64,000 nucleotides of DNA from Rhodospirillales bacterium (GTDB lineage Bacteria > Pseudomonadota > Alphaproteobacteria > SP197), in the NCBI GenBank assembly GCA_014323865.1, contig JACONG010000010.1, forward strand, positions 62,001 to 126,000. Direction: 5' to 3'. The first letter of the stretch is position 1; the number at the start of each line of letters is the position of its first letter. The notes below the pieces were generated by a model. The model made no database searches and had not been told where the DNA came from. It worked only from the letters and a program-made list of their open reading frames with translations. The position numbers and the translations under genes were made by a program. This document shows positions 43,010-62,868 of the stretch, piece by piece.

Positions 43010-43957
43010 ATGGCTCCTGGCACCTTCACGTTCTACCTGGTACCCAATTTCTCGATGATGGCCTTCACCGCCGCTGTCGAGCCCTTGCGTTCGGCTAATC
43101 GCATGAGCGGGTCGCGGCTCTACGACTGGCAGGTGGTCTCGCGTGACGGCCAGCCGGTCGTTGCGAGCAACGGGCTCGCGGTGGTTGCCCAGCACAGCAT
43201 CGAATCCGTGACCAGCTGCGACACGCTGCTGATCTGCGCCGGCATCGACGCCCACCGCTACGAGGACCGGCCGACCATGGCCTGGCTACGCAGGATTGCG
43301 CGTCAGGGTGGTGTCGTCGGCGCACTCTGCACGGGAACGCACCTTTTGGCGCGGGCGGGCCTGCTCGGGGGATACCGCTGCACCATCCACTGGGAAGACA
43401 TCGAAGGTTTCGTTGAGGAGCATCCGGATCTTGAGGTCACCGACGACATCTTCGAGATCGACCGCAATCGCGTCACCTGTTCGGGTGGTACCGCCGCACT
43501 CGATCTCATGCTGCACATGATCACCCTGCAGCACGGTGCCGAGCTCGCCGGCAAGGTCTCCGAACAGTTCATCCACGAGCGCATCCGCGAATCCCATGAT
43601 CACCAGCGCATGGCCCTGCAGTCACGCGTCGGCGTGAGCGATCCCAAACTGCTGGCGGCGATCGGTGAGATGGAATCGAACCTTGAAGAACCGTTGCCGC
43701 TGCCCGACATCGCCGACTCCGTTGGATTGTCGACTCGCCAGCTCGAGCGCCTTTTCAAGAAGCACCTGGGCCGCACGCCGTCGCGCTACTACCGCGAACT
43801 GCGCCTGCACCATGCCCGCCTGATGCTGATGCAGGGGTCGGCATCGATCCTGTCGATCGCTCTGGCCGCGGGGTTCGTCTCGGCCTCCCACTTCAGCCGC
43901 CGCTACCGCGAATACTTCGGCCGCACCCCCCGCGAGGAGCGGCGCGGGGCGTCATGA
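43010..43957 (+). CDS. GlxA-family transcriptional regulator
   Basis: 315 residues. N-terminal DJ-1/PfpI-like amidotransferase domain (about 5-190; FYLVPNFSMMAFTAAVEPLR, with the nucleophile-elbow-like GALCTGTHLLARAG and HWEDIEGFVE) and C-terminal AraC helix-turn-helix (about 215-312; IADSVGLSTRQLERLFKKH and AAGFVSASHFSRRYREYFGR). Homologues such as GbdR and CdhR activate glycine betaine, carnitine or dimethylglycine catabolism, which is suggestive given the genes from 45466 on. Overlaps the next gene by 4 bases. Confidence 0.88.
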   Translation: MAPGTFTFYLVPNFSMMAFTAAVEPLRSANRMSGSRLYDWQVVSRDGQPVVASNGLAVVAQHSIESVTSCDTLLICAGIDAHRYEDRPTMAWLRRIARQGGVVGALCTGTHLLARAGLLGGYRCTIHWEDIEGFVEEHPDLEVTDDIFEIDRNRVTCSGGTAALDLMLHMITLQHGAELAGKVSEQFIHERIRESHDHQRMALQSRVGVSDPKLLAAIGEMESNLEEPLPLPDIADSVGLSTRQLERLFKKHLGRTPSRYYRELRLHHARLMLMQGSASILSIALAAGFVSASHFSRRYREYFGRTPREERRGAS

Positions 43958-44976
43958 GCTCTGGCCCAGGCAAGACTCCGACAATCCATGACCGTGTGCG
44001 CGCCTGTTTGATCGGTGGCGCGGTCGGTGACGCTTTCGGCTTCGAAATCGAGTTCGATCGATTGTCGGAAATCCGAAACCGATTTGGTCCCTGCGGAATC
44101 ACCGAGCCTGTCTTCCATCGCGGCCACCTCATTGTCTCCGACGATACGCAGATGACCTTGTTTACGCTTGAAGGTCTCTTGCGTTGCCCTCCCAACCGGA
44201 ACGTCCCGGACTCCGTCCTCCATTCGGTCAACGAGGCTTATCTCGACTGGTATCAAACACAGCAACCGAACACGTCCCGACCGTTCGCTGGAGCCCTCGC
44301 GAGGGATGAGATTCTTCATGTTCGGCGCGCGCCGGGCATCACATGCCTCTCAGCGCTCCGAAACGGCGGTATGGGATCGCCCGCCTCACCGCGGAACGAC
44401 AGCAAGGGATGCGGCGGTGTCATGCGTGTCGCACCGGTAGCGTTCTGGTCGGACATCGATCAGGACAACCTCTTCGATCTCGCGTCTCGGACAGCCGCAC
44501 TCACTCATGGCCATCCGTGCGGATACCTGTCGGCAGGAGCGATGGCGACGATGATTGCCGGACTCATTCGCGGCATGACCTACGACGACGTGTCTGAGCG
44601 CATGTTGACCCTTCTTGAGCAAGAAGAAGACGGTCTTGAGACAGTACAAGCAATCCGCGCTGCCCGAAGTGCTGCGTCTTCACCACGGCGCGCCGACGAC
44701 AAAGCAATCCAGGCGCTCGGCGAGGGGTGGGTTGGTGAAGAGGCGCTCGCCATCGCACTCTATGCCGTCCTTGTGGCGAAGGATTTCAAGGAGGCGTTGC
44801 GCGTTTCTGCGAACCACGATGGCGACAGCGACAGCACGGCGAGCATCGCCGGTCAGCTTTGGGGAGCGGCCTACGGCTTCGAAGGTATGCCGGCCGATTG
44901 GGCCAAGCGTCTCGATGTTCGCCACCTCATCGACGAACTTCTTAAGCAGTGGTCCGAGCAGGGGACCGGATCCTGA
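43954..44976 (+). CDS. ADP-ribosylglycohydrolase family protein
   Basis: 340 residues. DraG-like all-helical fold with the magnesium-binding motifs: GGAVGDAFGFEIEF near 18-31, SDDTQMTLFTLEGLL starting at Ser62 (metal-binding Asp63/Asp64 and Thr65), and HDGDSDSTASIAGQLWG around Asp289/Asp291. Family members remove ADP-ribose from proteins or small molecules. It is translationally coupled to the GlxA-type regulator; no ADP-ribosyltransferase gene is visible nearby. Confidence 0.88.
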   Translation: MSSGPGKTPTIHDRVRACLIGGAVGDAFGFEIEFDRLSEIRNRFGPCGITEPVFHRGHLIVSDDTQMTLFTLEGLLRCPPNRNVPDSVLHSVNEAYLDWYQTQQPNTSRPFAGALARDEILHVRRAPGITCLSALRNGGMGSPASPRNDSKGCGGVMRVAPVAFWSDIDQDNLFDLASRTAALTHGHPCGYLSAGAMATMIAGLIRGMTYDDVSERMLTLLEQEEDGLETVQAIRAARSAASSPRRADDKAIQALGEGWVGEEALAIALYAVLVAKDFKEALRVSANHDGDSDSTASIAGQLWGAAYGFEGMPADWAKRLDVRHLIDELLKQWSEQGTGS

Positions 44977-44979
44977 AGA

Positions 44980-45436
44980 TCAACGGAACATGTCCTGCGG
45001 GTTGCCCATTTCGTTGTAGCCGGGCACGCCGGTGCCGTGGTGGACGTGCCAGCCGAGGATCTGCTGGGCGCGTTTGGGCAGGGTCTTCACCACATCGGCC
45101 GGCAGGTTGAGATCGTGGTTCTCGACCGGCCGCAGCCAGCCCCTCGCAGTCGGAGATCGAGAGGCCACGGAGGATATAGGTCGCGGTGCTTGTGCCGCCG
45201 ATGTAAATGGTCTCGCCGGTGAAGATCGCGCCCGTGCCCGCCGGCATCTCCGTCGGAACGATGTCCCCGGGCTCGGCCATCTTCGCCCTTGTTCCAGATA
45301 TGGCTGCCCGGAATGATCAGCGTGGCGCCGTTTTCGGCCATGTCGTCGGTCAGCGCGATCGTCGCGTTCACGCAGAGATTGCCGAGGCTCCGGAGCGGTG
45401 TGGGCCAGGAGTTATCGGTGTGAAGGCGCTGGGCCG
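44980..45436 (-). pseudogene. Phytanoyl-CoA dioxygenase family remnant with two frameshifts
   Basis: Three minus-strand frames join into one protein: HTDNSWPTPLRSLGNLCVN and NGATLIIPGSHIWNKGED (about 45430-45285), then DIVPTEMPAGTGAIFTGETI and TATYILRGLSISDCEGL (45268-45140), then DLNLPADVVKTLPKRAQQ and HHGTGVPGYNEMGN up to the stop at 44980. The iron-binding HTD and the later region are recognisable, but the N-terminal third is missing and the frame breaks twice. Not functional as it stands. Confidence 0.85.
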
Positions 45437-45465
45437 CTTGTCCGGGATGAGACGGCGGTGGGTGC

Positions 45466-47487
45466 CTATTCCGCCGCCTCACTCCCCCTGCGGCCCTCGC
45501 GGCGGCGCCTGCGGCGTCCGCCACCGGCATCGTCATCGGTCTGGGCGAACTTCGGCTCGGGCAAGGTCACCTCCTGTGTGAGGTTGGGATAGCTCGCCGT
45601 CTTGTGGGGGATCGCCATGCTCTCGACGAAGTGCTCCTGGAACTTCGGCTCGACCGCTGTTTCGATCTTCTCGATGCGGCGGACCTGGTTCTCGAGTTCC
45701 TTGCGCAGCGACCCGTTCAGGAGTGCGATGCGTGCGCCGGTGCCGGCGGCATTGCCGGCCGAGCACACGTTGCCGAGATCGCAGTCGGGGATCATGCCCA
45801 GGATCATGGCGTACCTGGGGTCGATATGACTGCCGAAGGCACCTGCCAGCGTGACCTTGTCGACCGCGTCGATCTCCATGTGATCCATCAGAAGACGCGC
45901 ACCGGCATGGAGCGCGCCCTTGGCGAGCTGAATCTGGCGGATGTCGTTCTGGGTCACGGTGATCTGGGGCGAGCCGTCGTGAAGCACATAGGCGAAGGTG
46001 CGCTCCTGCTGGATCACACGCGGGGTCTTCGCCGCCATGGCACCGTCGATCACACCGTCGGTCGTGAGCAGGCCGGTGAGGTACATCTCTGCCAGGGCCT
46101 CGATGATGCCGGAGCCGCAGATACCGGTGGGCTCGATGTCGAAACCTTCCTCGTTCGACCAGCGCTCATCGCCGATCACCTTGAAGCGGGGTTCCAGTGT
46201 CTCGGGGTCGATCGCGACACGTTCGATGGCACCGGGCGCGGCGCGCTGACCCGAGCTGATCTGTGCACCCTCGAAGGCCGGACCCGTGGGCGAGGAGGCG
46301 GCAAGCAGCCGGTCCCTGTTGCCCAGGATGATCTCGGCGTTGGTGCCGACATCGACGATCAGCGTCATCTCGTCGTTCTTGTAGGGCATCTCGCACAGCA
46401 CGACGCCGGCGGCATCGGCACCGACGTGGCCCGCGATACAGGGCAGCACGTAGATGCGCGAGCCGGTGTTGAGATGGAGATCGATGTCGGACGCCAGCAT
46501 GATCGTCGCGTCATCGGTCGTCAGCGCAAACGGTGCGAATCCGAGCGGTGTGGGATCGAGTCCCAGCACCAGGTGGTGCATCACCGGGTTGCCGACGATC
46601 GAGACCTCCATGATGTCGTTGAGGTCGACGCCGGCTTCCCTGGCGGTCTCCTGCGCGAGGTCGTTGAGCGCCTTGCGCACGACCTCGGTCATGGCCTCGG
46701 CACCGCCCTCGTTCATCATCGCATAGCTGACACGGCTCATGAGATCTTCGCCGAAACGGATCTGCGGGTTCATCTGGCCCGCCGAGGCGAGCACTTCGCC
46801 GGTTAGCAGGTCGCAGAGGTGCATGGCAATCGTGGTCGAGCCGACATCGGTCGCAATGCCATGGACCTTGTCGTGGAAGCCCGGTCGGATATCGACCAGC
46901 CGCTTGCCCCGACGCACCATCACCGTCGCCTTGTACTCGCCGTCTTCCAGCGTCTTGTGAAGCTTGCGCAGGACATGTGCATCGACGCCCGCGACCGTTA
47001 CGTCCCAGGTCTCCTTCAGCGCTTTTTCCAAGCGGCGAAGGTGGGACGCCGGGTCATGCATGTCGGGTTCGGGGATCTCGACATACATGGGTCGGACGAC
47101 GGGATCGACCTCGACTGTGCGGGCGTCGGCGCGCTTGCGCACGATCTGGCGATGGACCTGGCTTTCTTCCGGTACGTCGACCACAAGGTCGCCACCGATG
47201 CGGACCTGGCACGAGAGCCGGCGATTTTCCTTGAGCAGCCCGCTCTTGCGCTGGCGCTCCTCGGCGTCGGTCAGCGGCGTCAGATTGTCCTGCGATGATG
47301 CGATGCCGTGTTTGGCGAAGTCGCCTTCGCCGATGCGCACCTGGCAACGCGTGCAGATGCCGCGTCCGCCGCAGACGGAGTCGAGATCCACGCCCAACTC
47401 GCGCGCTGCCTGCAGAAGCTGCGTGCCGCGTCGGAACCGGCCTCGCCTGCCCGACGGGGTAAAGACGACAAGAGGATCGTCAGGCAC
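45466..47487 (-). CDS. Corrinoid protein reactivator: [2Fe-2S] ferredoxin plus ASKHA ATPase (RamA-like, DUF4445)
   Basis: 673 residues. N-terminal plant-type [2Fe-2S] domain with Cys39, Cys45, Cys48 (VCGGRGICTRC) and Cys93, a linker, and an ASKHA ATPase core with GIATDVGSTTIAMHLCDL, LIVDVGTNAEIILGNRDRL and ICGSGIIEALAEMYLTGLL. RACE proteins of this type reduce accidentally oxidised Co(II) corrinoid back to Co(I) using ATP. A Lys/Arg-rich tail ends the protein. Last gene of the minus-strand one-carbon operon; overlaps the methyltransferase gene by 8 bases. Confidence 0.9.
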   Translation of the reverse strand: MPDDPLVVFTPSGRRGRFRRGTQLLQAARELGVDLDSVCGGRGICTRCQVRIGEGDFAKHGIASSQDNLTPLTDAEERQRKSGLLKENRRLSCQVRIGGDLVVDVPEESQVHRQIVRKRADARTVEVDPVVRPMYVEIPEPDMHDPASHLRRLEKALKETWDVTVAGVDAHVLRKLHKTLEDGEYKATVMVRRGKRLVDIRPGFHDKVHGIATDVGSTTIAMHLCDLLTGEVLASAGQMNPQIRFGEDLMSRVSYAMMNEGGAEAMTEVVRKALNDLAQETAREAGVDLNDIMEVSIVGNPVMHHLVLGLDPTPLGFAPFALTTDDATIMLASDIDLHLNTGSRIYVLPCIAGHVGADAAGVVLCEMPYKNDEMTLIVDVGTNAEIILGNRDRLLAASSPTGPAFEGAQISSGQRAAPGAIERVAIDPETLEPRFKVIGDERWSNEEGFDIEPTGICGSGIIEALAEMYLTGLLTTDGVIDGAMAAKTPRVIQQERTFAYVLHDGSPQITVTQNDIRQIQLAKGALHAGARLLMDHMEIDAVDKVTLAGAFGSHIDPRYAMILGMIPDCDLGNVCSAGNAAGTGARIALLNGSLRKELENQVRRIEKIETAVEPKFQEHFVESMAIPHKTASYPNLTQEVTLPEPKFAQTDDDAGGGRRRRRREGRRGSEAAE

Positions 47488-48391
47488 GACGCCTCCGTCC
47501 CTCGCGACGCTTGGCGCGCGCTTCGGCGATTGAGGCGCCGCCCGAGCCGGACCCTGAGTTCAGCGAGATCCAGGTGTGGCAGTTCTTGTCGACGCCGTTC
47601 ATGACGTCGGCCGCACGCAGGCCGGTCATGATCTCGGCTTCGAGCGGATTCGTGATCGCCGAGGTCATGCCATTCGAGGCGGCCATGGTGAGGAATGCGG
47701 CGTTCAGTGCCGGGCGCGCGGGAAGACCGAAAGAGATGTTCGAGGCGCCGCAGGTCGTGTTGACCTTCAGCTCCTCGCGCAGGCGGCGGATGATCTTGAA
47801 GGCCGTACGGCCGGCCTCGCCAATGGCGCCGATCGGCATGACGAGCGGATCGACGACGACATCCTCGGGCGGAATCCCGTGATCCTGGGCGCGCTCGACG
47901 ATCTTCCTGGCGACGGCGTAGCGCTCGTCGGGATCCTCGGAGATGCCGGTCTCGTCGTTCGAGATGGCGACGACCGCGGCGTTGTACTTTGCGACCAGAG
48001 GCAGAACCGACTCGAGGCGCTCTTCCTCGCCTGTGACCGAATTAACCAGGGGCTTGCCGACGTAGGCTTCCAGGCCCTTCTCAAGCGCGGCGACGATCGA
48101 GCTGTCGATCGAGAGCGGCACGTCCGTCAGCGACTGCACCAGCTTGATGCAGTCACAGAGCATCTGCGGCTCGTCGGCCAAGGGCACGCCAGCGTTGACG
48201 TCCAGCATATGCGCGCCGGCCTGGACCTGCGCGACGGTGTCGGATTCCACGCGGCTGTAGTCGCCTTCGGCCATCTCGGCGGCGAGCTTCTTGCGGCCCG
48301 TGGGGTTGATGCGTTCGCCGATCACGGTGAACGGGCGATCGAAGCCGATGATAACGGTCTTGGTCGCCGAGCTGATAACGGTCTCGGTCAT
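47480..48391 (-). CDS. Methyltetrahydrofolate:corrinoid methyltransferase
   Basis: 303 residues from ATG 48391. Pterin-binding TIM barrel: TVIGERINPTGRKKLAAEMA, MLDVNAGVPLADE, PLSIDSSIVAALEKGL, SNDETGISEDPDERYAVAR and NISFGLPARPALNAAFL, as in AcsE/MtgA-type enzymes. It would move the methyl group from the corrinoid protein to tetrahydrofolate. A basic, Arg-rich tail (AEARAKRREGRRRR) is unusual for the family. Overlaps the MetF-like gene by 4 bases. Confidence 0.9.
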   Translation of the reverse strand: MTETVISSATKTVIIGFDRPFTVIGERINPTGRKKLAAEMAEGDYSRVESDTVAQVQAGAHMLDVNAGVPLADEPQMLCDCIKLVQSLTDVPLSIDSSIVAALEKGLEAYVGKPLVNSVTGEEERLESVLPLVAKYNAAVVAISNDETGISEDPDERYAVARKIVERAQDHGIPPEDVVVDPLVMPIGAIGEAGRTAFKIIRRLREELKVNTTCGASNISFGLPARPALNAAFLTMAASNGMTSAITNPLEAEIMTGLRAADVMNGVDKNCHTWISLNSGSGSGGASIAEARAKRREGRRRRA

Positions 48392-49473
48392 GCCTTCGCT
48401 TTGAACCTCTGTTGCATATAGTCGGGAATAACGGGGTCGACGGCGTGGGGTGCACGACCCTTCAGGACGTCGGATTTTTCGATGATCTCGGCAACGCTCT
48501 CCTCCTGACGATACGCCATCAGGTGGATGCCGGAAACGCCTTCGATCTCCCTGATCTGCTGGATCAGGTCGATGCAGAGCTGCTTGCCCTCGGCCTTCTG
48601 CTTCTCCGCGCCTTCGAGACGCTTGATGACGTCGTCGGGGATGTGAACACCGGGCACGTTGGAGCGAATCCACTTCGCTGTACGGGCCGAGGCGAGCGGG
48701 CCGACACCGACCAGGATGAAGCACTTCTCGTGGAGCCCCATGTCGCGAACACGCTTCATGTACTCTTCGAGCAGCAGGATGTCGTAGCAGTACTGTGTCT
48801 GCACGAACTGCGCACCCGCCGCGATCTTCTTGGCCAGCCGCAGCGGCCGCACGTCGTACGGCGGAGCGAAGGGATTGGCGGCTGCGCCGAGCAAGAGCTC
48901 GGGTGCCTTGTCGAGCTTGCGTCCCGAGGAGAAGGTCCTCTCGTCACGCATTGTGCGCAGGATTTCGAGCGAACCCATGCAGTCCAGGTCGAAGACCGGC
49001 CTGGCCTCGGGATGGTCGCCGCACTGCACGCCGTCGCCGGTCAGACACAGGATGTTCGCCACACCCATGGCAGATGCGCCCAACACGTCGCCCTGGATGG
49101 CGATGCGGTTGCGGTCGCGCGCCGATATCTGCATCACCGGCACGTAGCCCACGCGGGTGAGCAGGGCGCAGACACCGACACTCGACATGTGGCAGTTCGC
49201 GCCGGAACCGTCGGTCGCGTTGATAGCATCAACCCATCCGTCGAAGATCGAAGCACGTTCGAAGACATCCATGGGGTCGGCGGAATCGGGCGGCGACAGC
49301 TCGGCGGTCACGGCGAACTCGCCGGCCCGCAGGATGCGCTCGAGTCGGCCGCGTGAGGTATGGCCGGGGAGGAGCTCCAGCGGTGCACCCGGGTCGATTA
49401 TCTCCGGGAACGCCGGACCCTCGTTCAGCGGGCCCGTCGGTTGGCAGGGATTGTCGAGGTCGTCGGATGTCAT
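48388..49473 (-). CDS. Methylenetetrahydrofolate reductase-like protein (copy 1)
   Basis: 361 residues from ATG 49473; 40-60 residues longer than usual MetF because of a polar N-terminal extension. FAD-dependent TIM barrel with FAVTAELSPPDSADPMDVFE, VDAINATDGSGANCHMSS, LCLTGDGV and FVQTQYCYDILLLEEYM. In this operon it would oxidise methyl-THF to methylene-THF. Overlaps the MTHFR C-terminal gene by 4 bases, its likely partner subunit. Confidence 0.87.
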   Translation of the reverse strand: MTSDDLDNPCQPTGPLNEGPAFPEIIDPGAPLELLPGHTSRGRLERILRAGEFAVTAELSPPDSADPMDVFERASIFDGWVDAINATDGSGANCHMSSVGVCALLTRVGYVPVMQISARDRNRIAIQGDVLGASAMGVANILCLTGDGVQCGDHPEARPVFDLDCMGSLEILRTMRDERTFSSGRKLDKAPELLLGAAANPFAPPYDVRPLRLAKKIAAGAQFVQTQYCYDILLLEEYMKRVRDMGLHEKCFILVGVGPLASARTAKWIRSNVPGVHIPDDVIKRLEGAEKQKAEGKQLCIDLIQQIREIEGVSGIHLMAYRQEESVAEIIEKSDVLKGRAPHAVDPVIPDYMQQRFKAKA

Positions 49474-49970
49474 GTCGCGATCTTCCCGATGTCCGTGCGC
49501 GCCGACTCCTTCGGCTCGGGATAGGTGCCGTCCTTCTTCTGGCGCATGATCCGCAGCCAGGAGGAGCTCCCCTTCATACGATGATCGACGGGCTCCTGGA
49601 CATCGAAGAACTTGCCGTTGGCCATGGCTTGGCTGCCCTCCCATGCCTCGACCCATACGCATGGCATCTCGGGTTTCACCTCGCAGTGACCGTTGCTGCG
49701 AACGCCGCCGCAGGGACCGTTGCGCAGGTTCTTCGGGCAGTTCATGGGGCATGACATGCCGGTCGAGCTGAGTGCGCACTGCCCGCACATCTGGCAATCG
49801 AACATCAAGCCTTTGATGTTGCGTTCGACCGCGACGACCGGCCTTTCCAGCTTCTGGTAGCCGATCTTCCGTGCGAGCGGCTCGATCACCATGATCGTGC
49901 CTTCGAACATCTCATAGAGCTTCATCAATCCGCGCGAATTCCGCACGGACCACAGACGCATCGCGCGCAT
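49470..49970 (-). CDS. Methylenetetrahydrofolate reductase C-terminal domain protein (MTHFR_C, Cys-rich)
   Basis: 166 residues. Eight or more Cys in the block FDCQMCGQCALSSTG, MSCPMNCPKNLRNGPCGG and NGHCEVKPEMPCVWVEAW, the hallmark of the MTHFR_C family (related to MetV), which binds zinc or an Fe-S cluster and forms a complex with MetF-type reductases of acetogens. It is placed between two MetF-like genes. The start could also be the ATG three codons later. Confidence 0.88.
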   Translation of the reverse strand: MRAMRLWSVRNSRGLMKLYEMFEGTIMVIEPLARKIGYQKLERPVVAVERNIKGLMFDCQMCGQCALSSTGMSCPMNCPKNLRNGPCGGVRSNGHCEVKPEMPCVWVEAWEGSQAMANGKFFDVQEPVDHRMKGSSSWLRIMRQKKDGTYPEPKESARTDIGKIAT

Positions 49971-49997
49971 GGCGCAGCCTCCGTTTGGCGCGGCAGC

Positions 49998-50915
49998 TCA
50001 GCCGCGCAGGTTGTAATCCGACAACGTCTGGGCGATGGCCTTCTCGCCGCGTGGCGCCATCAGATGCGCGCCGCTGATACCCTCGATTTCCTTGAACTGC
50101 TCGACCAGTTCGGCGCAGATCTTGCGGCCCTCCGCCTTCTCGTCATCCGCGCCCTCGATGCGCGCGATGACATGGTCGGGAACATGCACGCCGAAAAGAT
50201 TCTCGGTCATCCAGCGCGCCGAGCGGGCCGACATGATCGGACCTACGCCGACGATGAAGAATGCCTTCTCGGTGATGCCGCGGTCGACCAGGGCGGCCAT
50301 GTAGCGCTTCAGAACCTCAATGTCGTAGGCGAACTGCGTCTGGAAGAAATCGGCACCGGCTTCGAGCTTGGCTTCGATGCCCTTGGTGTTGAAGTTCTCG
50401 TCGGGGTCGCGTGGTGTCTCCGCGCCGCCGATGATCAGGCCCGGCGCAGGATCGATCTTGCGCTCGCTTGGGGCAGGGAAGGTGCCGGTATCGCGCATAT
50501 GGCGCGCCATCGACATCAGTCCGCGGCTGTCCATGTCTTCCACAGGTTTGGCATCGGGCTGGTCGCCGTTGGTGATGCTGTCGCCGTGCAGGCAGAGGAT
50601 TGAGTGAATGCCGAGTGCGGGCGCGCCGATCATGTCGCCCTGGATGGCCAGCCGGTTGCGATCGCGCGTTGTGAACTGCAGGACGGGCTCGATGCCGTTG
50701 TTGGCCATCATGGCGCAGGTTGCGATGGCCGACATGTGCGCACGGGCGCCGGCACCGTCAGTCACGTTGACCGCATCGACCAGTCCCTTGAGGCAGCCTA
50801 CCTTGTCCATGACCGAGGCTTCGCTCGCGCCGTCGGGCGGGGTGGTCTCGGCCGTCAGCACGAAATCGCCGGCGCGCAGCTTGGCTTCCAGATTGCCGTT
50901 CGATTTCATGGTCAT
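49998..50915 (-). CDS. Methylenetetrahydrofolate reductase-like protein (copy 2)
   Basis: 305 residues, normal MetF length (an ATG two codons later is also possible). FVLTAETTPPDGASEASVMD, VDAVNVTDGAGARAHMSA, LCLHGDSITNGDQPDAK and FFQTQFAYDIEVLKRYM align with copy 1 throughout. Two non-identical MetF-like proteins in one operon suggests a heteromeric reductase or two different steps. 27 bases separate it from MTHFR_C and 7 from the gene before it. Confidence 0.87.
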   Translation of the reverse strand: MTMKSNGNLEAKLRAGDFVLTAETTPPDGASEASVMDKVGCLKGLVDAVNVTDGAGARAHMSAIATCAMMANNGIEPVLQFTTRDRNRLAIQGDMIGAPALGIHSILCLHGDSITNGDQPDAKPVEDMDSRGLMSMARHMRDTGTFPAPSERKIDPAPGLIIGGAETPRDPDENFNTKGIEAKLEAGADFFQTQFAYDIEVLKRYMAALVDRGITEKAFFIVGVGPIMSARSARWMTENLFGVHVPDHVIARIEGADDEKAEGRKICAELVEQFKEIEGISGAHLMAPRGEKAIAQTLSDYNLRG

Positions 50916-50922
50916 CGTCTCC

Positions 50923-51228
50923 CTATGCCTCTGGCTTCAGGCCGCCGGCGCGGATGTAACCCGCCAGGACCTCATCGGTGAACTCGGTGTCGAGCTTGGT
51001 GGCCAGCACGTCGGCTTCGGTCTCCAGGTCATCGCCGCAGGCAACGGATTCGCCACGGCGCCAGTGCTCGAGATAGGAATCGGTATCGCCCAATTTGGCG
51101 TACATGGCCGACTGATCGATCGCCTTCTCGAAGCGCTCGGGCAGAACACGCTTGGCGTTCTTGCGTCCGGCCTTCGCGATGACTTGCGCAGGGATGTCGC
51201 GCCAGTAAACAATCGTCAGGGTTGCCAT
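50923..51228 (-). CDS. 'Virulence factor' domain protein of unknown function
   Basis: 101 residues beginning TLTIVYWRDIPAQVIAKAGR, with KRVLPERFEKAIDQSAMYA and YLEHWRRGE, the pattern of the small family labelled virulence factor in domain databases. The name is historical; the steady linkage of this family to methyl-THF and corrinoid genes suggests a role in one-carbon metabolism. Overlaps the DUF1638 gene by 13 bases, so both are co-translated. Confidence 0.8.
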   Translation of the reverse strand: MATLTIVYWRDIPAQVIAKAGRKNAKRVLPERFEKAIDQSAMYAKLGDTDSYLEHWRRGESVACGDDLETEADVLATKLDTEFTDEVLAGYIRAGGLKPEA

Positions 51229-51836
51229 AATTGTACTCGGGTGGCGGCGTTGTTGGCTTCGGCGAGCAGGGGCTGCAGTCCGCCGTAACCGGTGAAGATC
51301 ATCTCGAAGTCGAGGTTCAGGCGCTCGGCGGCGGCTCGGGCCTTGGCTTCTACGTCTGCGTTGTGAGTTTGGGCCAGATAGACGAGCTTCTTGTAATTGC
51401 CGAACAGCATCGATTCGATCTCGGGGTGCCGGTCAACACCCATGCCCTTCAGGATCAGGGTCTCGAAGTGTTTGGCGAGGTAGTCGGTCAGATAAAACGT
51501 ACCGAGCTCGGCTTCGTGCAGGGCCGTGAATTCCTCGTCGCCGGCATAGAACTGGTAGCAGTGCGGACCGCGGATGCGCTCGACACCTTCCTCCTCCAGA
51601 ACCGCGTCGAGCAAGCCGCCGGTGCCGCAATCTCCATAAGCGACGTAGATATGGTCGAACTCTTCGCGCGCCGCACGAATCTTCTCGCGCACCCCCTCAG
51701 GAATGAGCTGTGGCCTGTTGTGCCAGTCGGCGGGCAGGCATTGGACTTCGATGGCGTCCCATCCGTTGGCATGGATGAGCGCCATGATCTCCCAGGCCAG
51801 CGCTCCGCAGGCAATGACAAGGCTGCGGTCGGCCAC
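51216..51836 (-). CDS. DUF1638 protein
   Basis: 206 residues from GTG 51836, 7 bases after the corrinoid protein stop; the open frame continues upstream only as antisense-like sequence. SLVIACGALAWEIMALI, LPADWHNRPQLIPEGVREKI, HIYVAYGDCGTGGLLDAVL and GPHCYQFYAGDEEF are the conserved blocks of DUF1638, a family with conserved Cys residues often found next to MttB and corrinoid proteins. No activity is established; cofactor or metal binding by the CGTGG and HCYQFY Cys is possible. Confidence 0.82.
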   Translation of the reverse strand: MADRSLVIACGALAWEIMALIHANGWDAIEVQCLPADWHNRPQLIPEGVREKIRAAREEFDHIYVAYGDCGTGGLLDAVLEEEGVERIRGPHCYQFYAGDEEFTALHEAELGTFYLTDYLAKHFETLILKGMGVDRHPEIESMLFGNYKKLVYLAQTHNADVEAKARAAAERLNLDFEMIFTGYGGLQPLLAEANNAATRVQLWQP

Positions 51837-51843
51837 GTCGTGA

Positions 51844-52548
51844 TCAGGCCGCGGGCGCGCCCTGGCGGCGTTCGGCAACCATGGTCTTGGCGGTCTCGAC
51901 GGCCACCGCCGCGTCGCGGCAGTAGGCATCGGCGCCCACGCTGTCGGCGAAGGCCTCGTTGAGCGGCGCACCGCCGACGAGAACCATGTACTCATCGCGC
52001 AGGCCACGCTCCTTCAGCGTGTCGATCACGACCTTCATGTAGGGCATGGTCGTGGTCAAAAGAGCCGACATGCCGAGGAAGTCCGGCTTGTGCTCTTCGA
52101 GCGCATCCATGTAGGCATCTGCATCGTTGTTGATGCCGATATCCCAGACATCGAAACCGGCACCCTCGAGCATCATGCCCACGAGATTCTTGCCGATGTC
52201 GTGAATGTCGCCCTTCACGGTGCCGATCACCATAGAGCCCAGCTTCGGCGCGCCGGTCTCGGCGAGCAGCGGGCGCAGGATGTTCATGCCGGCCTTCATC
52301 GAGTTGGCGGCCAGGAGCACCTCAGGCACGAAGAGAATGCCGTCGCGGAAGTCGATACCGACGATCCGCATGCCTTCGACCAGCGCTTCGGTCAGAACCT
52401 TGTACGGTTCCCATCCGCGCCCCAGCAGAATGTTGACGCCCTCGACGATCTCATCTGCGAGACCATCGTAGAGGTCCTCGTGCATCTGTTGCACAAGTTC
52501 ATCATCATCCAACGTGCTGAGATCGAGATCGTCCTCTTCGTCGGCCAT
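51844..52548 (-). CDS. Corrinoid (B12-binding) protein, MtbC/MtgC-like
   Basis: 234 residues from ATG 52548. Acidic N-terminus, a helical cap domain (VPEVLLAANSMKAGMNILRP), then the Rossmann-like B12 domain with GTVKGDIHDIGKNLV, whose His116 is the lower cobalt ligand, and SALLTTTMPYMKVVIDTL and LVGGAPLNEAFA. It carries the methyl group between MttB-type methyltransferase and the THF methyltransferase. First gene of the minus-strand operon. Confidence 0.92.
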   Translation of the reverse strand: MADEEDDLDLSTLDDDELVQQMHEDLYDGLADEIVEGVNILLGRGWEPYKVLTEALVEGMRIVGIDFRDGILFVPEVLLAANSMKAGMNILRPLLAETGAPKLGSMVIGTVKGDIHDIGKNLVGMMLEGAGFDVWDIGINNDADAYMDALEEHKPDFLGMSALLTTTMPYMKVVIDTLKERGLRDEYMVLVGGAPLNEAFADSVGADAYCRDAAVAVETAKTMVAERRQGAPAA

Positions 52549-52639
52549 GTGACGCACTCCTACGGCGGCTTCGGATTGAACTCGGTCGCACAGGTAGGCC
52601 CGTCATGGTCCCCATGGCTAGAATGATCGCGACACGGCT

Positions 52640-52716
52640 TGTCACAATTACGACACACGTCGACCAATCCTGACGCAATCCAAACCAAATCCGCCCGGTT
52701 GTGACGACGGTGTCAC
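52640..52716. promoter_or_regulatory. Inverted repeats in the mttB/corrinoid divergent region
   Basis: TGTC-N8-GACA at 52640-52655 and GTGAC-N6-GTCAC at 52701-52716 lie in the 361-base region between the two divergent transcripts. They share a TGTCA-like half site and could bind one regulator. The rest of 52549-52909 shows no gene, and I could not find a cobalamin riboswitch B12 box. Confidence 0.3.
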
Positions 52717-52909
52717 GGGCGCAGTTCCAAGGGTTCATATCGCCGGTCACAGTCTTGTGCAGTGCAGCATTTGTTCGGCTGCGGCGTCGATGTGGTCCGT
52801 CCGTAAGCGACATGACCGCCAACCCCGAGTCGTCGTGTGCCCCCACACCTCGCTGTCCCTGATTGACTCGCCCTTCGGCAAGCCTCACATAGCCGCGTGA
52901 TCTCTTGGA

Positions 52910-54451
52910 ATGAGGCCCATGGCGGCATCAGCGCAATCGAGGCGGGGTGGACGTGCGGCAAGGCGCAAGGAGCGGGTCGGCGCGCCGATCGTCCAGAAGC
53001 GCTACATCACCCGCAACATACCGCTCTATGAACTGTTCGACGAGGCGGGGCTGGAGCTGATCCACGACACCTCCATGGAGATCCTGGAGGAGGTCGGCAT
53101 CGACTTCCGCGACGAGGTGGCGCTGGCCCACTGGAAGGAGGCGGGCGCCGATGTGAAGGGTGAGCGGGTCCACATCCCGCGCGGCCTGACCGAGGAGAAG
53201 CTGGCGCTGATCCCCGAGCAGTACACCCAGGTCGCTCGCAATCCCGACCGCACCGTGTTGATCGGCGGCAAGCACACCGTCTTCGCACCGACCTTCGGTT
53301 CGCCCTTCGTGCGCGACTTCGACAACAACAGGCGCTACGCCACGCTCGAAGACCTGCAGAACTTCATCAAGCTGACCTACATGACGCCCGAGCTGCACCA
53401 CGACGGCGGCATCATCTGTGAACCTGTCAATGTGCCCGTTCCCAAGCGGCATCTCGACATCATCTATTCGCACATGAAGTACTCGGACAAGCCGTTCATG
53501 GGTGTGCAGTCGGCACCCGAACGCGCCTATGACTCCTGCAAGATGGTCGAGATCCTGTTCGGCGCGGACTTCATCCGTGAGAACACGGTGATGACCTCGG
53601 TGGTGAACTGCAACTCGCCGCTGGTGTGGGACGAATCCATGCTCGGAGCGCTGCGGCACTATGCCGAGCACAACCAGGCGGTGCTCATCACGCCGTTCAT
53701 CATGGCCGGTGCGATGGCCCCGGTCGCGACTGCAGGCGCGATCGCCCAGCTCAACGCCGAGGTGACGGCGGGCCTGGCCTACAGCCAACTCGTGAAGCCC
53801 GGCGTGCCGATGGTCTACGGCAGCTTCCTCGCCACGGTCTCGATGCAGTCGGGCGCGCCGATGATGGGCACGCCCGAGACGCTGCAAATGATCTATGCCG
53901 TCGGCCAGCTCTCCCGGAAGTACGGCGTGCCGTTGCGCTCGGGCGGCATGCTGAACGGTGCCAAGATCGCCGATGCCCAGGCCGCCTACGAATCGATGCA
54001 GACCATGACGGCGACTCTGCTCGCCGGCACCAACTTCGTGCTGCACTCGGCCGGCTGGCTCGAGGCCGGTCTCACCGCCGGCTACGGCAAGTTCATCATG
54101 GACACCGAGCAGATCGCCATGCTTCAGGCCTTCACCGAGCCACTCGACATGACGGAGAACGGGCTCGGCATGGAAGCCATCCGGGAGGTCGGTCCGGGCA
54201 ATCATTTCCTTGGCTGCGCCCACACCCAGCGGAACTACCTCAACGGATTCTTCATGCCCCAGTTGGCCGACAACAACAGCTACGAGCAGTGGGAAGCCGA
54301 GGGTGCGAAGACTCACGACCAGCGCGCCGTCGAAAAGGCCAAGCGCATGCTTGCTCATTACGAGGCGCCCGAGCTCGATCCCGCAAAGGACGAAGAACTC
54401 CAGGCCTTCATGGCCGAGCGCAAGGCGGTGCTACCCGATATCGTGAGCTGA
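52910..54451 (+). CDS. mttB: MttB-family methyltransferase, non-pyrrolysine type
   Basis: 513 residues. Starts with a basic stretch (about 9-22), then the TIM-barrel methyltransferase with LELIHDTSMEILEEVGIDF, HIPRGLTEEKLALIP, SDKPFMGVQSAPERAYD, QSGAPMMGTPETLQMIYAVG and FLGCAHTQRNYLNGFFMP. The frame has no internal TAG, so no pyrrolysine residue is encoded. Non-Pyl members demethylate glycine betaine, proline betaine or carnitine onto a corrinoid protein; which substrate is used here is open. Divergent from the corrinoid operon. Confidence 0.9.
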   Translation: MRPMAASAQSRRGGRAARRKERVGAPIVQKRYITRNIPLYELFDEAGLELIHDTSMEILEEVGIDFRDEVALAHWKEAGADVKGERVHIPRGLTEEKLALIPEQYTQVARNPDRTVLIGGKHTVFAPTFGSPFVRDFDNNRRYATLEDLQNFIKLTYMTPELHHDGGIICEPVNVPVPKRHLDIIYSHMKYSDKPFMGVQSAPERAYDSCKMVEILFGADFIRENTVMTSVVNCNSPLVWDESMLGALRHYAEHNQAVLITPFIMAGAMAPVATAGAIAQLNAEVTAGLAYSQLVKPGVPMVYGSFLATVSMQSGAPMMGTPETLQMIYAVGQLSRKYGVPLRSGGMLNGAKIADAQAAYESMQTMTATLLAGTNFVLHSAGWLEAGLTAGYGKFIMDTEQIAMLQAFTEPLDMTENGLGMEAIREVGPGNHFLGCAHTQRNYLNGFFMPQLADNNSYEQWEAEGAKTHDQRAVEKAKRMLAHYEAPELDPAKDEELQAFMAERKAVLPDIVS

Positions 54452-58830: not shown

Positions 58831-59844
58831 ATGGTCGTCTTTATCCTCAAGCGGTTGCTGATGATGGCGGCCACCATGGTGGTGGCCTCGTTCATCGTCT
58901 TCGCGCTCATGGAATTCACACCGGGTAACGTGGCGAGCAAGACGCTCGGTCCGTACGCGACCCCGGAACAAAAAGACATTCTCTACGAGAAGCTGAATCT
59001 CGATGATCCGCTGCTCACACGCTACTTCCGGTGGGTCGGCGTGCTGGTGGGCGTGATCGCCGATCCGCTGCAGGATCCCGATCTGGGCCTGGGCTTCGAC
59101 GATCCCCGTGGTGACCAGTACTTCGGGAATTTCGGCTATTCGCTGAAATACAAGGGTCCGGTCAACGACACGATCTGGCGACGGCTGGAGAACACGCTGA
59201 TACTCGCAGGTATTGCCTTCGCCATCATCGTCCCGCTCTCTCTGGTCTTTGGTGTGCTGTCGGGGATGCGGGAGGGCAGCGCACTCGATCGAACGTTGTC
59301 GTACACCAGCATCACCCTGACCTCGATACCGGAGTTCGCATCGGCAGTGTTCTTATCGGCCGTCTTCGTGCTGATGCTGGGGTGGTTACCCGGTACATCG
59401 ACCATGCAGAACTTCGATGAATGGTCATGGGCCTCGCAGATGATCATGCCGGTCGCTGTGCTTGTGCTCTACGACTTCGGCTACGTGGCGCGCATGGTGC
59501 GCGGCTCGATGGTCGAGGTCATGACCAGACCCTACATTCGAACCGCCATTCTGAAGGGTATTCCCTATCGCCAGGTAATCATGAAACACGCGCTGCGCAA
59601 CGCGCTGATCGCGCCGTTCACGGTCATTCTGCTGCAGATTCCTTTCCTGATCACGGGCGTGGTCGTGACCGAGATCGCCTTCGGTTATCCGGGCTTCGGC
59701 AAGATGCTCCTGGAGTCGGCGACCTTCGGTGACATCACAATGGTGGAGGCTGCCACGTTGATCGCGGTGTTCATTGCCGTATCGACGCAGCTCATCGGTG
59801 ACGTCGGGTACATGTACATCAACCCGCGTATCCGGTTCACCTGA
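58831..59844 (+). CDS. Oligopeptide-type ABC transporter permease (DppB-like)
   Basis: 337 residues. Six membrane segments; starts FILKRLLMMAATMVVASFIV, has the long periplasmic loop after helix 1 and the inner-membrane EAA-type loop YIRTAILKGIPYRQVIMKHA, ending YMYINPRIRFT as DppB/OppB do. First gene of an operon with permease 2 and a fused ATPase. The region 58598-58830 upstream shows no gene. Confidence 0.92.
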   Translation: MVVFILKRLLMMAATMVVASFIVFALMEFTPGNVASKTLGPYATPEQKDILYEKLNLDDPLLTRYFRWVGVLVGVIADPLQDPDLGLGFDDPRGDQYFGNFGYSLKYKGPVNDTIWRRLENTLILAGIAFAIIVPLSLVFGVLSGMREGSALDRTLSYTSITLTSIPEFASAVFLSAVFVLMLGWLPGTSTMQNFDEWSWASQMIMPVAVLVLYDFGYVARMVRGSMVEVMTRPYIRTAILKGIPYRQVIMKHALRNALIAPFTVILLQIPFLITGVVVTEIAFGYPGFGKMLLESATFGDITMVEAATLIAVFIAVSTQLIGDVGYMYINPRIRFT

Positions 59845-59855
59845 GGGAGGCTGCC

Positions 59856-60779
59856 ATGACGGATCAGACACAAGAACAGACTCCCCAGGTCGACGGCAAC
59901 GCGCCCAAGAGCGCGGAACAGCCGGATCGCACAGGCTTCGCCAAGTTCATCTACAACATTGGCCTGCTGGGCGAATCCTGGTCGGCGATGATCGGCGTTG
60001 CAATCATCATCTTCTGGGTCTTTGTCGCCATCTTCGCCGATGTCATCACAGTCTTCGGCCCGCTCGAGAACGACTATCTTCATACGCTGAAGGAACCGTT
60101 TACCGAGGGTCCGCACTGGCTTGGCACCGATGAATTGGGTCGTGACCTTTGGTCGCGGCTGGCTTATGGCGCACGCAACACGCTGGTGATCGCGCCGGCG
60201 GCCATGATCTGCGCCTACTTCCTGGGCATCCTGATGGGCATGATGGCCGGTTACTACGGTGGCTGGGTCGACAATGTGATCAGCCGTATCAGCGACATCA
60301 TCCTGTCGTTCCCGTTGATCATCCTCTTCATCATCATCATCTCGGTGTTCGGCGCTTCGGCGATCAACATCATCGTTGCGGTGACGCTTGCGGCGTCTCC
60401 AGGCATCGGCCGTATTGTCCGAGGCCTGACGCTCGATCTGCGCAATCTGGAGTATGTCTCCGCGGCGCAGATCAGGGGTGAGAAGAGCCTCTACATCATG
60501 GCCGTGGAATTGCTGCCGAACGCTCGGGGGCCGCTGATCGTCGATGCCTGTCTGCGCATGGGCTACACGGTCATCACGATCGGTATTCTCGGTTTCCTTG
60601 GTCTCGGCCTGCCGCCGCCCGAGCCTGACTGGGGTGGCATGGTTGCCGGAGCACGGACCTTCGTGACCGTGCCGGGCAAGGCCTATCTCGCGATCATTCC
60701 GTCGATCGCCGTCTCCAGCCTCGTTGTCGGCTTCAATCTGTTCGCCGACGGCCTGCGCGAAATCTCGACGAGGGACTGA
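59856..60779 (+). CDS. Oligopeptide-type ABC transporter permease (DppC-like)
   Basis: 307 residues. N-terminal cytoplasmic tail, first helix MIGVAIIIFWVFVAIFADVI, GTDELGRDLWSRLAYGARNT and the EAA loop YVSAAQIRGEKSLYIMAVEL are DppC features. 11 bases after the DppB-like gene with GAGGGAGG before the start; 4 bases before the ATPase gene. Confidence 0.92.
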   Translation: MTDQTQEQTPQVDGNAPKSAEQPDRTGFAKFIYNIGLLGESWSAMIGVAIIIFWVFVAIFADVITVFGPLENDYLHTLKEPFTEGPHWLGTDELGRDLWSRLAYGARNTLVIAPAAMICAYFLGILMGMMAGYYGGWVDNVISRISDIILSFPLIILFIIIISVFGASAINIIVAVTLAASPGIGRIVRGLTLDLRNLEYVSAAQIRGEKSLYIMAVELLPNARGPLIVDACLRMGYTVITIGILGFLGLGLPPPEPDWGGMVAGARTFVTVPGKAYLAIIPSIAVSSLVVGFNLFADGLREISTRD

Positions 60780-60783
60780 CGCC

Positions 60784-62868
60784 ATGACCGATCAGACCAG
60801 CGACGACTACGTCCTCGAGATCGACAATATCGGGATCTCGTACTTCACCCGGATCGGCGAGATCCCGGCGGTGCCCGATTTCTCGCTCAGGCTGAAGCGC
60901 GGCGAGAGCTACGGCCTCGTCGGCGAGTCCGGTTGCGGCAAATCCACGGTTGCCATGGCGATCATGAACTACCTTGGCCGGAACGGCGGCATCGTGAAGG
61001 GCTCGATCAAATTCGAGGGCCGGGACATGTCGACCATGTCGCAGGAGGAGTTGCGGGACATTCGCGGCTCCAAGATCGCCATGGTCTACCAGGAACCGAT
61101 GAGCGCGCTGAACCCCAGCCTGACCATCGGCACCCAGCTCAAGGAAGTGCTCGTCATCCACGAGGGACTCTCCGACAAACAGGCCTATGAGCGTTGTGTC
61201 CAGATGCTGCGCGACGTCAACATGCCCGACCCCGACAAGGTCATGGCGCGTTACCCGCACCAGATCTCGGGCGGTCAGCAGCAGCGTGTCGTCATCGCCA
61301 TGGCGATGCTCTCGAACCCGTCGCTCCTCCTGCTCGACGAGCCCACCACGGCGCTCGACGTGACGGTCGAGGCGACGGTGATCGACCTGATCGCGAACCT
61401 GCGTGAGAAGTACAACACCACGCTGCTCTACATCAGCCACAATCTCGGTCTGATCGTGAAGGTCTGCGACCGGGTCGGCGTGATGTATTCGGGTTCGATG
61501 GTGGAAGAGGGCACGATCGACGAGCTCTTCAAGAAGACCCGTCATCCTTACACCTTCGGCCTCTTCGACTGCATCCCGACACTTGGGGCCGACAAGCACG
61601 CGCGCACGCTGGAGCCGATCCCCGGTCAGGTCTCGTTGCCGCATGAGCGGCCCCCGGGGTGTGCCTTCGGCCCGCGTTGCAAGTATTTCAAGCCGGGCGT
61701 GTGCGATCAGGGCGAGATTCCGATCGAACACCTGGATGGCAGCTCCACCCATCGCGCCCGGTGCCTGCGTGTGGACGAGATCGAACATGTCGCGTCCGAA
61801 GCCGGCAGCGAGGTCGACGTCTCCGAAGGTGAAGCCGTTCTCGACATCAACGAGATGAGCAAGTTCTACGAGATCTCGGACATGTCGCTTGCCGCGCTCT
61901 TCAAGGGCGAGAGCAAGCATTACGTGAAGGCAAACGAGAAGCTGAACTTCGAGGCCCAGCGCGGCCGCACGGTGGCAATTGTGGGTGAGTCCGGCTGCGG
62001 CAAGTCGACCTTCGCCAAGGTGCTGACCGGTCTCGAGACCGCGACCGACGGCGAAATCATGTTCGAAGGCACGAACATCGGCGTGATCCCGGCGCAGAAG
62101 CGTGACCCCAAGCTGATCCGTGCCTTGCAGATGGTCTTCCAGAACCCGGACGGCACACTCAACCCGAGCCATTCGGTCGGTCATTGCATCGGCCGCGTGA
62201 TCAAGAAGTTCGGCATCGAGCAGGATCCCGGGAAGATCCGCGATCGCGTCGGCGACATGCTCGAGATCGTGCGCCTGCCGCGGGCCTTCATCACCCGCAA
62301 GCCGCGCCAGCTTTCGGGCGGGCAGAAGCAGCGTATCGCTGTGGCTCGCGCCTTCGCCGGCAACCCGAGCATGGTGATCGCCGACGAGCCGGTCTCCGCG
62401 CTCGACGTGTCGGTGCAGGCTGCCGTGATCAACCTGCTGAACGACGTGCAGAAGCAGTACAACACGACTCTGCTCTTCATCAGCCACGACCTTTCGGTCG
62501 TGCGTTTCATCTCCGATGAGATCGTCGTGATGTATCTCGGCCAGATCATGGAATCGGGTGCCGCCGACAAAATCTTCGATCCGCCGTATCACCCGTATAC
62601 GGAGGCGCTGCTCTCGGCCGTGCCGATCCCGGATCCGGATATTGAGCAGAAGCGCATTCGTCTCGAAGGCGAGATGCCGTCGGTGCTGAACCCGCCGTCG
62701 GGCTGCCGCTTCTCGACCCGCTGTCCGCGCTATCTCGGCAAGCTTTGCGACGAGCAGGAACCGCCCAACCAGGATGTCGGCGACGGCCACGTCATCAAGT
62801 GCCACATCCCGCTGCGCGAGCTGGCCCAGGTCGAGCCCATCTTCCACCAGAAGGACGCGGCGGAGTAA
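60784..62868 (+). CDS. Fused dual ATP-binding protein of an oligopeptide-type ABC transporter (DppD-DppF fusion)
   Basis: 694 residues from ATG 60784. Two nucleotide-binding domains in one chain: Walker A GESGCGKST at 47-55 and again near 401-409; signatures ISGGQQQRVV near 160 and LSGGQKQRIA near 512; Walker B LLLLDEPTTALD and MVIADEPVSALD. Each half ends with the Cys-containing oligopeptide-binding extension (FGPRCKYFKPGVC; FSTRCPRYLGKLC). No substrate-binding protein gene is next to it. Confidence 0.94.
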   Translation: MTDQTSDDYVLEIDNIGISYFTRIGEIPAVPDFSLRLKRGESYGLVGESGCGKSTVAMAIMNYLGRNGGIVKGSIKFEGRDMSTMSQEELRDIRGSKIAMVYQEPMSALNPSLTIGTQLKEVLVIHEGLSDKQAYERCVQMLRDVNMPDPDKVMARYPHQISGGQQQRVVIAMAMLSNPSLLLLDEPTTALDVTVEATVIDLIANLREKYNTTLLYISHNLGLIVKVCDRVGVMYSGSMVEEGTIDELFKKTRHPYTFGLFDCIPTLGADKHARTLEPIPGQVSLPHERPPGCAFGPRCKYFKPGVCDQGEIPIEHLDGSSTHRARCLRVDEIEHVASEAGSEVDVSEGEAVLDINEMSKFYEISDMSLAALFKGESKHYVKANEKLNFEAQRGRTVAIVGESGCGKSTFAKVLTGLETATDGEIMFEGTNIGVIPAQKRDPKLIRALQMVFQNPDGTLNPSHSVGHCIGRVIKKFGIEQDPGKIRDRVGDMLEIVRLPRAFITRKPRQLSGGQKQRIAVARAFAGNPSMVIADEPVSALDVSVQAAVINLLNDVQKQYNTTLLFISHDLSVVRFISDEIVVMYLGQIMESGAADKIFDPPYHPYTEALLSAVPIPDPDIEQKRIRLEGEMPSVLNPPSGCRFSTRCPRYLGKLCDEQEPPNQDVGDGHVIKCHIPLRELAQVEPIFHQKDAAE

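What the first reader, a model, noticed from the sequence alone, without database searches (positions are those of the whole stretch)
45466..54451. Complete corrinoid-dependent demethylation and methyl-THF oxidation module with unknown parts
Seen: eight minus-strand genes with gaps or overlaps under 30 bases (corrinoid protein, DUF1638, virulence-factor domain, two MetF-like, MTHFR_C, MeTr, RamA-like ASKHA) and a divergent MttB homologue. Known: MttB-type proteins methylate corrinoid proteins, MeTr moves methyl to THF, RACE proteins reactivate Co(II). Inferred: a full route from a methylated amine or betaine to methylene-THF in what looks like an alphaproteobacterium, where such substrates are usually handled by oxygenases or dehydrogenases. 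Two functions (DUF1638, virulence-factor domain) have no assigned step and are the likely novelty.
Basis: partly seen in the sequence, partly recalled or inferred. Interest (0 to 1): 0.78.

Follow-up and report, generated by a model that had tools for sequence, protein, structure and literature searches.

The report
Vitamin-B12 betaine-demethylation operon with unnamed subunit
This is a real, widely conserved bacterial operon that uses vitamin B12 to strip methyl groups from betaine-type nutrients, and very likely also to make methionine; it is mostly a known system, but it carries a small protein misnamed 'virulence factor' that genomics now ties to the methyl-oxidising step.

Summary
In detail: eight overlapping or near-abutting minus-strand genes plus a divergent MttB, every family call upheld. 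The core (MttB/MtgB, MtgC, MtgD, RamA, DUF1638, MetF) is the aerobic MtgBCD system described in Ruegeria pomeroyi (PMC12478193), and DUF1638 already has genetic evidence for B12 reactivation (PMC5764234), so it is not an unassigned novelty. Sarcosine oxidase and a dimethylglycine-dehydrogenase-like gene just beyond the window support glycine betaine. The less-known part is PF13769 ('Virulence_fact'): in 152 Alphaproteobacteria it occurs only with MttB (27/27), and it sits directly upstream of a MetF-type gene in 70 of 80 scanned loci and 21 of 22 phylum-sample loci, even where DUF1638 lies elsewhere. No held paper names it. I propose it is a partner of the methyl-THF-oxidising MetF enzyme (about 50%). 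The window's family also carries a second, anciently split MetF. Overall: a known kind with one testable uncharacterised component.

The parts
45466..47487 (-). ramA-like corrinoid reductive activase (2Fe-2S + RACo middle + ASKHA C-terminal domain), 673 aa
   Evidence: Pfam RACo_C_ter 1e-90, Raco_middle 4e-48, Fer2 5e-8; motif CGGRGICTRC in the sequence
47480..48391 (-). mtgD: methylcorrinoid:THF methyltransferase (pterin-binding TIM barrel), 303 aa
   Evidence: NCBIfam PRK07535 353 bits, cut-off 259; Pterin_bind 1e-30
48388..49473 (-). metF-b: methylene-THF reductase homologue, the one conserved with metV across Proteobacteria, 361 aa
   Evidence: MTHFR 1e-32; in 50 of 80 loci; clade in tree
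49470..49970 (-). metV (DUF5981, MTHFR C-terminal), 166 aa with 8 cysteines, likely Fe-S/metal subunit
   Evidence: PF12225 6e-27; cysteines listed
49998..50915 (-). metF-a: second MTHFR homologue, restricted to the window's family and few others, old split from metF-b (48% identity), 305 aa
   Evidence: MTHFR 2e-34; identity; tree; 4 of 80 loci
50923..51228 (-). PF13769 'Virulence_fact' protein, 101 aa, motif WRDIPaQV; proposed MetF partner
   Evidence: PF13769 2e-20; co-occurrence; neighbourhood
51216..51836 (-). DUF1638 protein, 206 aa (GTG start), invariant Cys10/Cys70/Cys93, Cys33 in 53 of 55, His39/His92; corrinoid reactivation factor
   Evidence: PF07796 2e-31; conservation; genetics of orthologue in PMC5764234
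51844..52557 (-). mtgC: corrinoid protein (cap + B12-binding, DIHDIG motif); the only PF02607 protein found in the genome
   Evidence: Pfam 2e-24 and 5e-15; single genome match
52910..54451 (+). mttB/mtgB-type non-pyrrolysine methyltransferase, 513 aa, divergent from mtgC
   Evidence: MTTB 2.5e-216; 429 and 428 bits to 2qne and 9yce (glycine betaine methyltransferase); tree
43010..43957 (+). GbdR-like AraC regulator, probable regulator of the module (recurs beside homologous operons)
   Evidence: NF052371 381 bits, cut-off 480; in 43 of 80 loci

Best explanation
The genes form one aerobic corrinoid methyl-transfer module of the MtgBCD type. MttB-superfamily proteins (this one and about ten paralogues elsewhere in the genome) move a methyl group from glycine betaine and related quaternary amines to the Co(I) of MtgC. 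MtgD passes it to THF. MetF, with MetV and probably with the PF13769 protein as accessory subunit, oxidises methyl-THF to methylene-THF for C1 oxidation and the serine pathway. RamA and DUF1638 re-reduce Co(II) when MtgC becomes inactive. MtgD also runs backwards, so that MtgC with the stand-alone MtgE makes methionine. For glycine betaine, a dimethylglycine-dehydrogenase-like enzyme and soxBDAG just outside the window complete the route to glycine. Shown here by sequence: identities, gene order, conservation, one MtgC, no MetE or full-length MetH. Known from literature on orthologues: MtgC/MtgD dual role, RamA/DUF1638 phenotype. Inferred: the substrate of this MttB, the PF13769 role, and the reason for two MetFs.
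For: Families. Conserved order mtgC-DUF1638-PF13769-{metV-metF or metF2}-mtgD-ramA: of 80 PF13769 loci, DUF1638 in 75, MtgD 72, RamA 71, MtgC 70; same in the window's family. PF13769 x MttB in 152 genomes: 27 both, 0 PF13769-only, 4 MttB-only, 121 neither, Fisher p 5e-26; x DUF1638 24/3/2/123, p 1.7e-22; 18 of 24 adjacent. PF13769 directly followed by a MetF-type gene in 70/80 and 21/22 loci of the phylum sample. One MtgC in the genome; no MetE; PF02574 only in 384- and 341-aa frames, one above the PRK07534 cut-off, i.e. MtgE-like. soxBDAG, an MttB paralogue and a DMGDH-like gene within about 11 kb beyond the window end. Literature: PMC12478193, PMC5764234.
Against: No biochemical test was possible. 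The window's MttB belongs to a family-specific clade; the own paralogue beside soxBDAG is the one that groups with mtgC-linked MttBs of other orders, so the window MttB may use another amine. PF13769 is followed by ramA or mtgD instead of metF in about 7 loci, which weakens a strict MetF link. Co-occurrence counts ignore shared ancestry, and the 80-locus scan was chosen by similarity to PF13769. Rieske oxygenases are numerous in the genome and one scores 325 bits (cut-off 670) to GbcA, so another betaine route is not excluded. PF13769 also occurs in Bacillus subtilis, which has no MttB (controls).
Confidence: 0.78

Rival explanations
1. PF13769 works with DUF1638 and RamA in keeping MtgC reduced or oxygen-tolerant, not with MetF.
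For: Directly adjacent to DUF1638 in 18 of 24 genomes with both; between DUF1638 and ramA in L055, L074, L093.
Against: In many rhizobial loci and throughout family f23, PF13769 stays next to metV-metF or metF2 while DUF1638 lies 1-3 kb away or elsewhere. Methanosarcina acetivorans has MttB and DUF1638 but no PF13769 (controls).
Confidence: 0.3
2. The operon's main job here is methionine synthesis; the adjacent MttB is a minor or vestigial substrate port.
For: No MetE, no full-length MetH, MtgE-like protein present; Phaeobacter split-synthase, ramA and DUF1638 mutants are rescued by methionine (PMC5764234).
Against: 11 full-length MttB genes, a GbdR-like regulator, metV and two metF genes, and soxBDAG/DMGDH nearby all point to catabolism as well; the two roles are compatible (PMC12478193).
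Confidence: 0.12
3. The window MttB demethylates a betaine other than glycine betaine (for example proline betaine, carnitine, gamma-butyrobetaine), feeding the shared MtgC.
For: Family-specific clade separate from the paralogue beside the glycine-betaine genes; MttB-superfamily members in Eubacterium share one corrinoid protein across several substrates (PMC12478193).
Against: Still inside the MtgB-type group and 428 bits to the solved glycine betaine methyltransferase 9yce, slightly above the paralogue's 402.
Confidence: 0.4

Closest known systems
MtgBCD(E) of Ruegeria pomeroyi DSS-3 (PMC12478193)
   Same: MttB-family donor enzyme, separate corrinoid protein, separate pterin enzyme, RamA, DUF1638, metF paralogue, separate MtgE, absence of MetH
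   Different: Here the genes sit in one operon (a co-location that paper also reports for other bacteria); MetV plus a second MetF are present; the term 'virulence factor' does not occur in that paper's main text
Split methionine synthase with RamA and DUF1638 of Phaeobacter inhibens (PMC5764234)
   Same: Orthologous cap/B12, pterin, RamA-like and DUF1638 proteins
   Different: Here linked to MttB and a methyl-THF oxidation block
MtgABC of Desulfitobacterium hafniense
   Same: Three-protein glycine betaine:THF methyl transfer; the window MttB scores 428 bits to a solved glycine betaine methyltransferase, 9yce
   Different: MtgC here scores 198 bits against the curated MtgC model's cut-off of 370
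MetVF-type MTHFR of acetogens (PMC8760232, abstract)
   Same: DUF5981 MetV next to MetF
   Different: Presumably an aerobe and the oxidative direction; extra MetF and PF13769 protein; electron acceptor unknown

Membership tests
Aerobic MtgBCD(E) system | Non-pyrrolysine MttB-superfamily methyltransferase (MtgB) | tested here: met
   MTTB 2.5e-216, no in-frame stop; 429/428 bits to 2qne/9yce
Aerobic MtgBCD(E) system | Stand-alone corrinoid protein with cap and B12 domain | tested here: met
   PF02607 and PF02310 in 237 aa; only one in genome
Aerobic MtgBCD(E) system | Stand-alone pterin methyltransferase MtgD | tested here: met
   PRK07535 353 bits over cut-off 259
Aerobic MtgBCD(E) system | RamA-like and DUF1638 reactivation proteins | tested here: met
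Aerobic MtgBCD(E) system | Stand-alone MtgE and no classical MetH/MetE | tested here: met
   PRK07534 442 bits over cut-off 338; PF01717 none; PF02574 only short frames
Aerobic MtgBCD(E) system | Demethylates glycine betaine in vivo and supports methionine synthesis | not testable with these tools
   needs mutants or enzymes
Curated anaerobic MtgC (NF047995/NF047996) | Score above curated cut-off | tested here: not met
   180/310 and 198/370 bits
Pyrrolysine MttB (TIGR02369) | Score above cut-off and in-frame TAG | tested here: not met
   283 of 525 bits; no stop inside
MetVF-type MTHFR | MetV (DUF5981) encoded with MetF | tested here: met
MetVF-type MTHFR | Fe-S clusters and electron partner | not testable with these tools
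   8 cysteines in MetV only
Glycine betaine monooxygenase GbcAB (alternative route) | GbcA above NCBIfam cut-off in this genome | tested here: inconclusive
   Highest GbcA score among the eight best Rieske matches is 325 of 670 bits; some frames were partial and lower-ranked ones were not scanned

The most novel reading that the evidence does not exclude
PF13769, annotated as a 'virulence factor', is an unrecognised conserved subunit of the methyl-THF-oxidising MetF enzyme (MetF2 or MetVF) of aerobic corrinoid-dependent demethylation in Proteobacteria, perhaps directing MetF into the oxidative direction or to its electron acceptor.
Probability: 0.5. Interest if true: 0.6.

Novelty: new member of a known kind. 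Interest (0 to 1): 0.42.

Why it matters
Aerobic B12-dependent demethylation of betaines is a recently described, widespread route in the ocean (PMC12478193). If a small protein labelled 'virulence factor' is a fixed part of it, its name misleads annotators in hundreds of genomes, and the open question of how methyl-THF is oxidised in these aerobes gains a concrete candidate. A single corrinoid protein apparently serving about eleven methyltransferases plus methionine synthesis is also a clean case for studying partner choice.

Tried and rejected
Cobalamin or SAM riboswitch near the operon: Rfam finds only a tRNA in the window. Solved relatives of PF13769 and DUF1638 by sequence: none credible. 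Fold comparison of confident AlphaFold2 models (pLDDT 94 and 92.5): no PDB hit at E <= 1e-3 for either, so no function was read from fold. Recent tandem duplication as origin of the two MetFs: rejected, they fall in two separate clades with 100/100 support. Literature naming PF13769: none held. Another methyltransferase gene-cluster paper (PMC10418091) does not mention DUF1638 or MttB. DUF1638 as an unassigned novelty: rejected on PMC5764234.

Full report
OBSERVATION. The eight minus-strand genes and the divergent mttB are as described. Pfam upholds every family, the junctions are overlaps of 4-13 bases or gaps of 7-27 bases, and the same order is found in the 14 relatives of the same family that I fetched (three lack a detected mttB within the stretch, one lacks a detected metF-b, and one contig ends before mtgD). 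The DUF1638 gene probably starts at the GTG at 51836, 7 bases from the mtgC stop. No riboswitch is seen.

WHAT IT IS. The set matches the aerobic MtgBCD system. In Ruegeria pomeroyi, MtgC and MtgD are needed both for growth on glycine betaine and for methionine synthesis, and the MttB-type proteins, a metF paralogue, RamA and DUF1638 rise on N-osmolytes (PMC12478193). The same paper says these genes are often co-located or in operons in other bacteria. [quoted passage not shown] the authors assign both to B12 reactivation while offering no specific mechanism for DUF1638 (PMC5764234).

WHOLE-GENOME CONTEXT. The genome is 2.82 Mb and 99.88% complete. It has 15 MttB matches, 11 of them full length and none with an in-frame stop. 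It has exactly one cap-domain (PF02607) protein, the mtgC of this operon. PF01717 (MetE) is absent. PF02574 occurs only in two short frames, so there is no full-length MetH, and one of them passes the curated cut-off of the model that covers MtgE-type proteins (PRK07534, 442 against 338 bits). By inference one MtgC serves all MttBs and methionine synthesis. Just past the window end lie soxB-soxD-soxA-soxG, an MttB paralogue and a DAO+FAO_M+GCV_T protein of the dimethylglycine dehydrogenase type (L040). With a GbdR-like regulator beside the operon (381 bits, cut-off 480), glycine betaine is the best-supported substrate of the system as a whole. Rieske oxygenases are numerous; the best GbcA score among the eight tested is 325 against a cut-off of 670, so a parallel oxygenase route is neither shown nor excluded.

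WHICH SUBSTRATE FOR THIS MttB. The window MttB and its orthologues form a family-specific clade within the MtgB-type group; the own paralogue next to soxBDAG instead falls with MttBs linked to mtgC in other orders. Both score similarly to the solved glycine betaine methyltransferase 9yce (428 and 402 bits). The substrate of this particular protein stays open.

THE PF13769 PROTEIN. In an even sample of 152 Alphaproteobacteria, PF13769 is in 27 genomes, all with MttB, and 24 with DUF1638; Fisher p 5e-26 and 1.7e-22, with the caveat that shared ancestry is not corrected for. The two genes are within 120 bases in 18 of 24. A scan of species genomes with a PF13769 alignment gave at least 597 relatives; in the 80 kept, DUF1638 was present in 75, MtgD in 72, RamA in 71, MtgC in 70. 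PF13769 was directly followed by metV-metF, metF2 or metF-a in 70. In a separate phylum sample, 21 of 22 loci had metF2 or metV directly downstream, including family f23 where DUF1638 is not next to it (two of the 22 genomes were also in the class sample). Position therefore tracks MetF better than DUF1638. Exceptions exist: followed by ramA in L055, L074, L093 and by mtgD in L115, L134, L145, L175. Methanosarcina acetivorans has MttB and DUF1638 but not PF13769; Bacillus subtilis has PF13769 without either (controls). The protein has an invariant WRDIP.QV motif, Arg22, Asp38, Tyr52 and Trp56, and no conserved Cys or His, a confident model (pLDDT 94) and no fold relative in the PDB. I propose a MetF accessory subunit, at about 50%.

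DUF1638. Cys10, Cys70, Cys93, His39, His92 and Asp118 are invariant in 55 proteins and Cys33 in 53. In the model (pLDDT 92.5) Cys10, Cys33 and Cys70 lie at or just after the ends of the first three strands, so a shared metal or Fe-S site is plausible; this is inference from secondary structure, since coordinates were not inspected.

TWO MetFs. MetF-b pairs with MetV widely (50 of 80 loci). MetF-a is confined to the window's family and a few others (4 of 80 loci), and the two fall in separate, fully supported clades. The function of the extra MetF is unknown; a complex with MetV is a guess.

VERDICT. Observation confirmed; interpretation partly supported; module a member of a known kind. The useful residue is the PF13769-MetF link, which one deletion in a laboratory strain would settle.

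Noticed in passing
window 45087-45536 (-): Fragment of a phytanoyl-CoA dioxygenase (PhyH, profile positions 101-166 of 213) just downstream of ramA; looks like a broken gene. Similar sequence (62-75% over about 50 aa) lies near the operon in several relatives.
   Followed up: partly
L040:131-10622 (own contig C10, just beyond the window end): soxBDAG sarcosine oxidase, an MttB paralogue and a dimethylglycine-dehydrogenase-like gene.
   Followed up: yes
own genome C10:33293-34785, C4:25792, C16:180746: Truncated or split MttB copies, suggesting decay within an expanded MttB family.
   Followed up: no
L047:8340-9296, L049:6729-7625: metF2-position proteins that barely register with the Pfam MTHFR model (E 0.09-0.2), so family scans will miss the MetF of many of these operons.
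   Followed up: partly
L041:2858-11938 (own contig C10): By eye a Cas2-like protein and large helicase-like and Cas-like genes: possible type I CRISPR-Cas locus.
   Followed up: no
window 58831-62868: Oligopeptide/dipeptide-type ABC transporter genes between the operon and soxBDAG; possible role in uptake not tested.
   Followed up: partly
window 43954-44976 (+): ADP-ribosylglycohydrolase family protein whose start overlaps the end of the GbdR-like gene.
   Followed up: no
own genome, contigs C1, C4, C5, C6, C11, C13, C16: At least ten Rieske ring-hydroxylase-type alpha subunits in a 2.8 Mb genome, one (C4:194367) moderately GbcA-like.
   Followed up: partly
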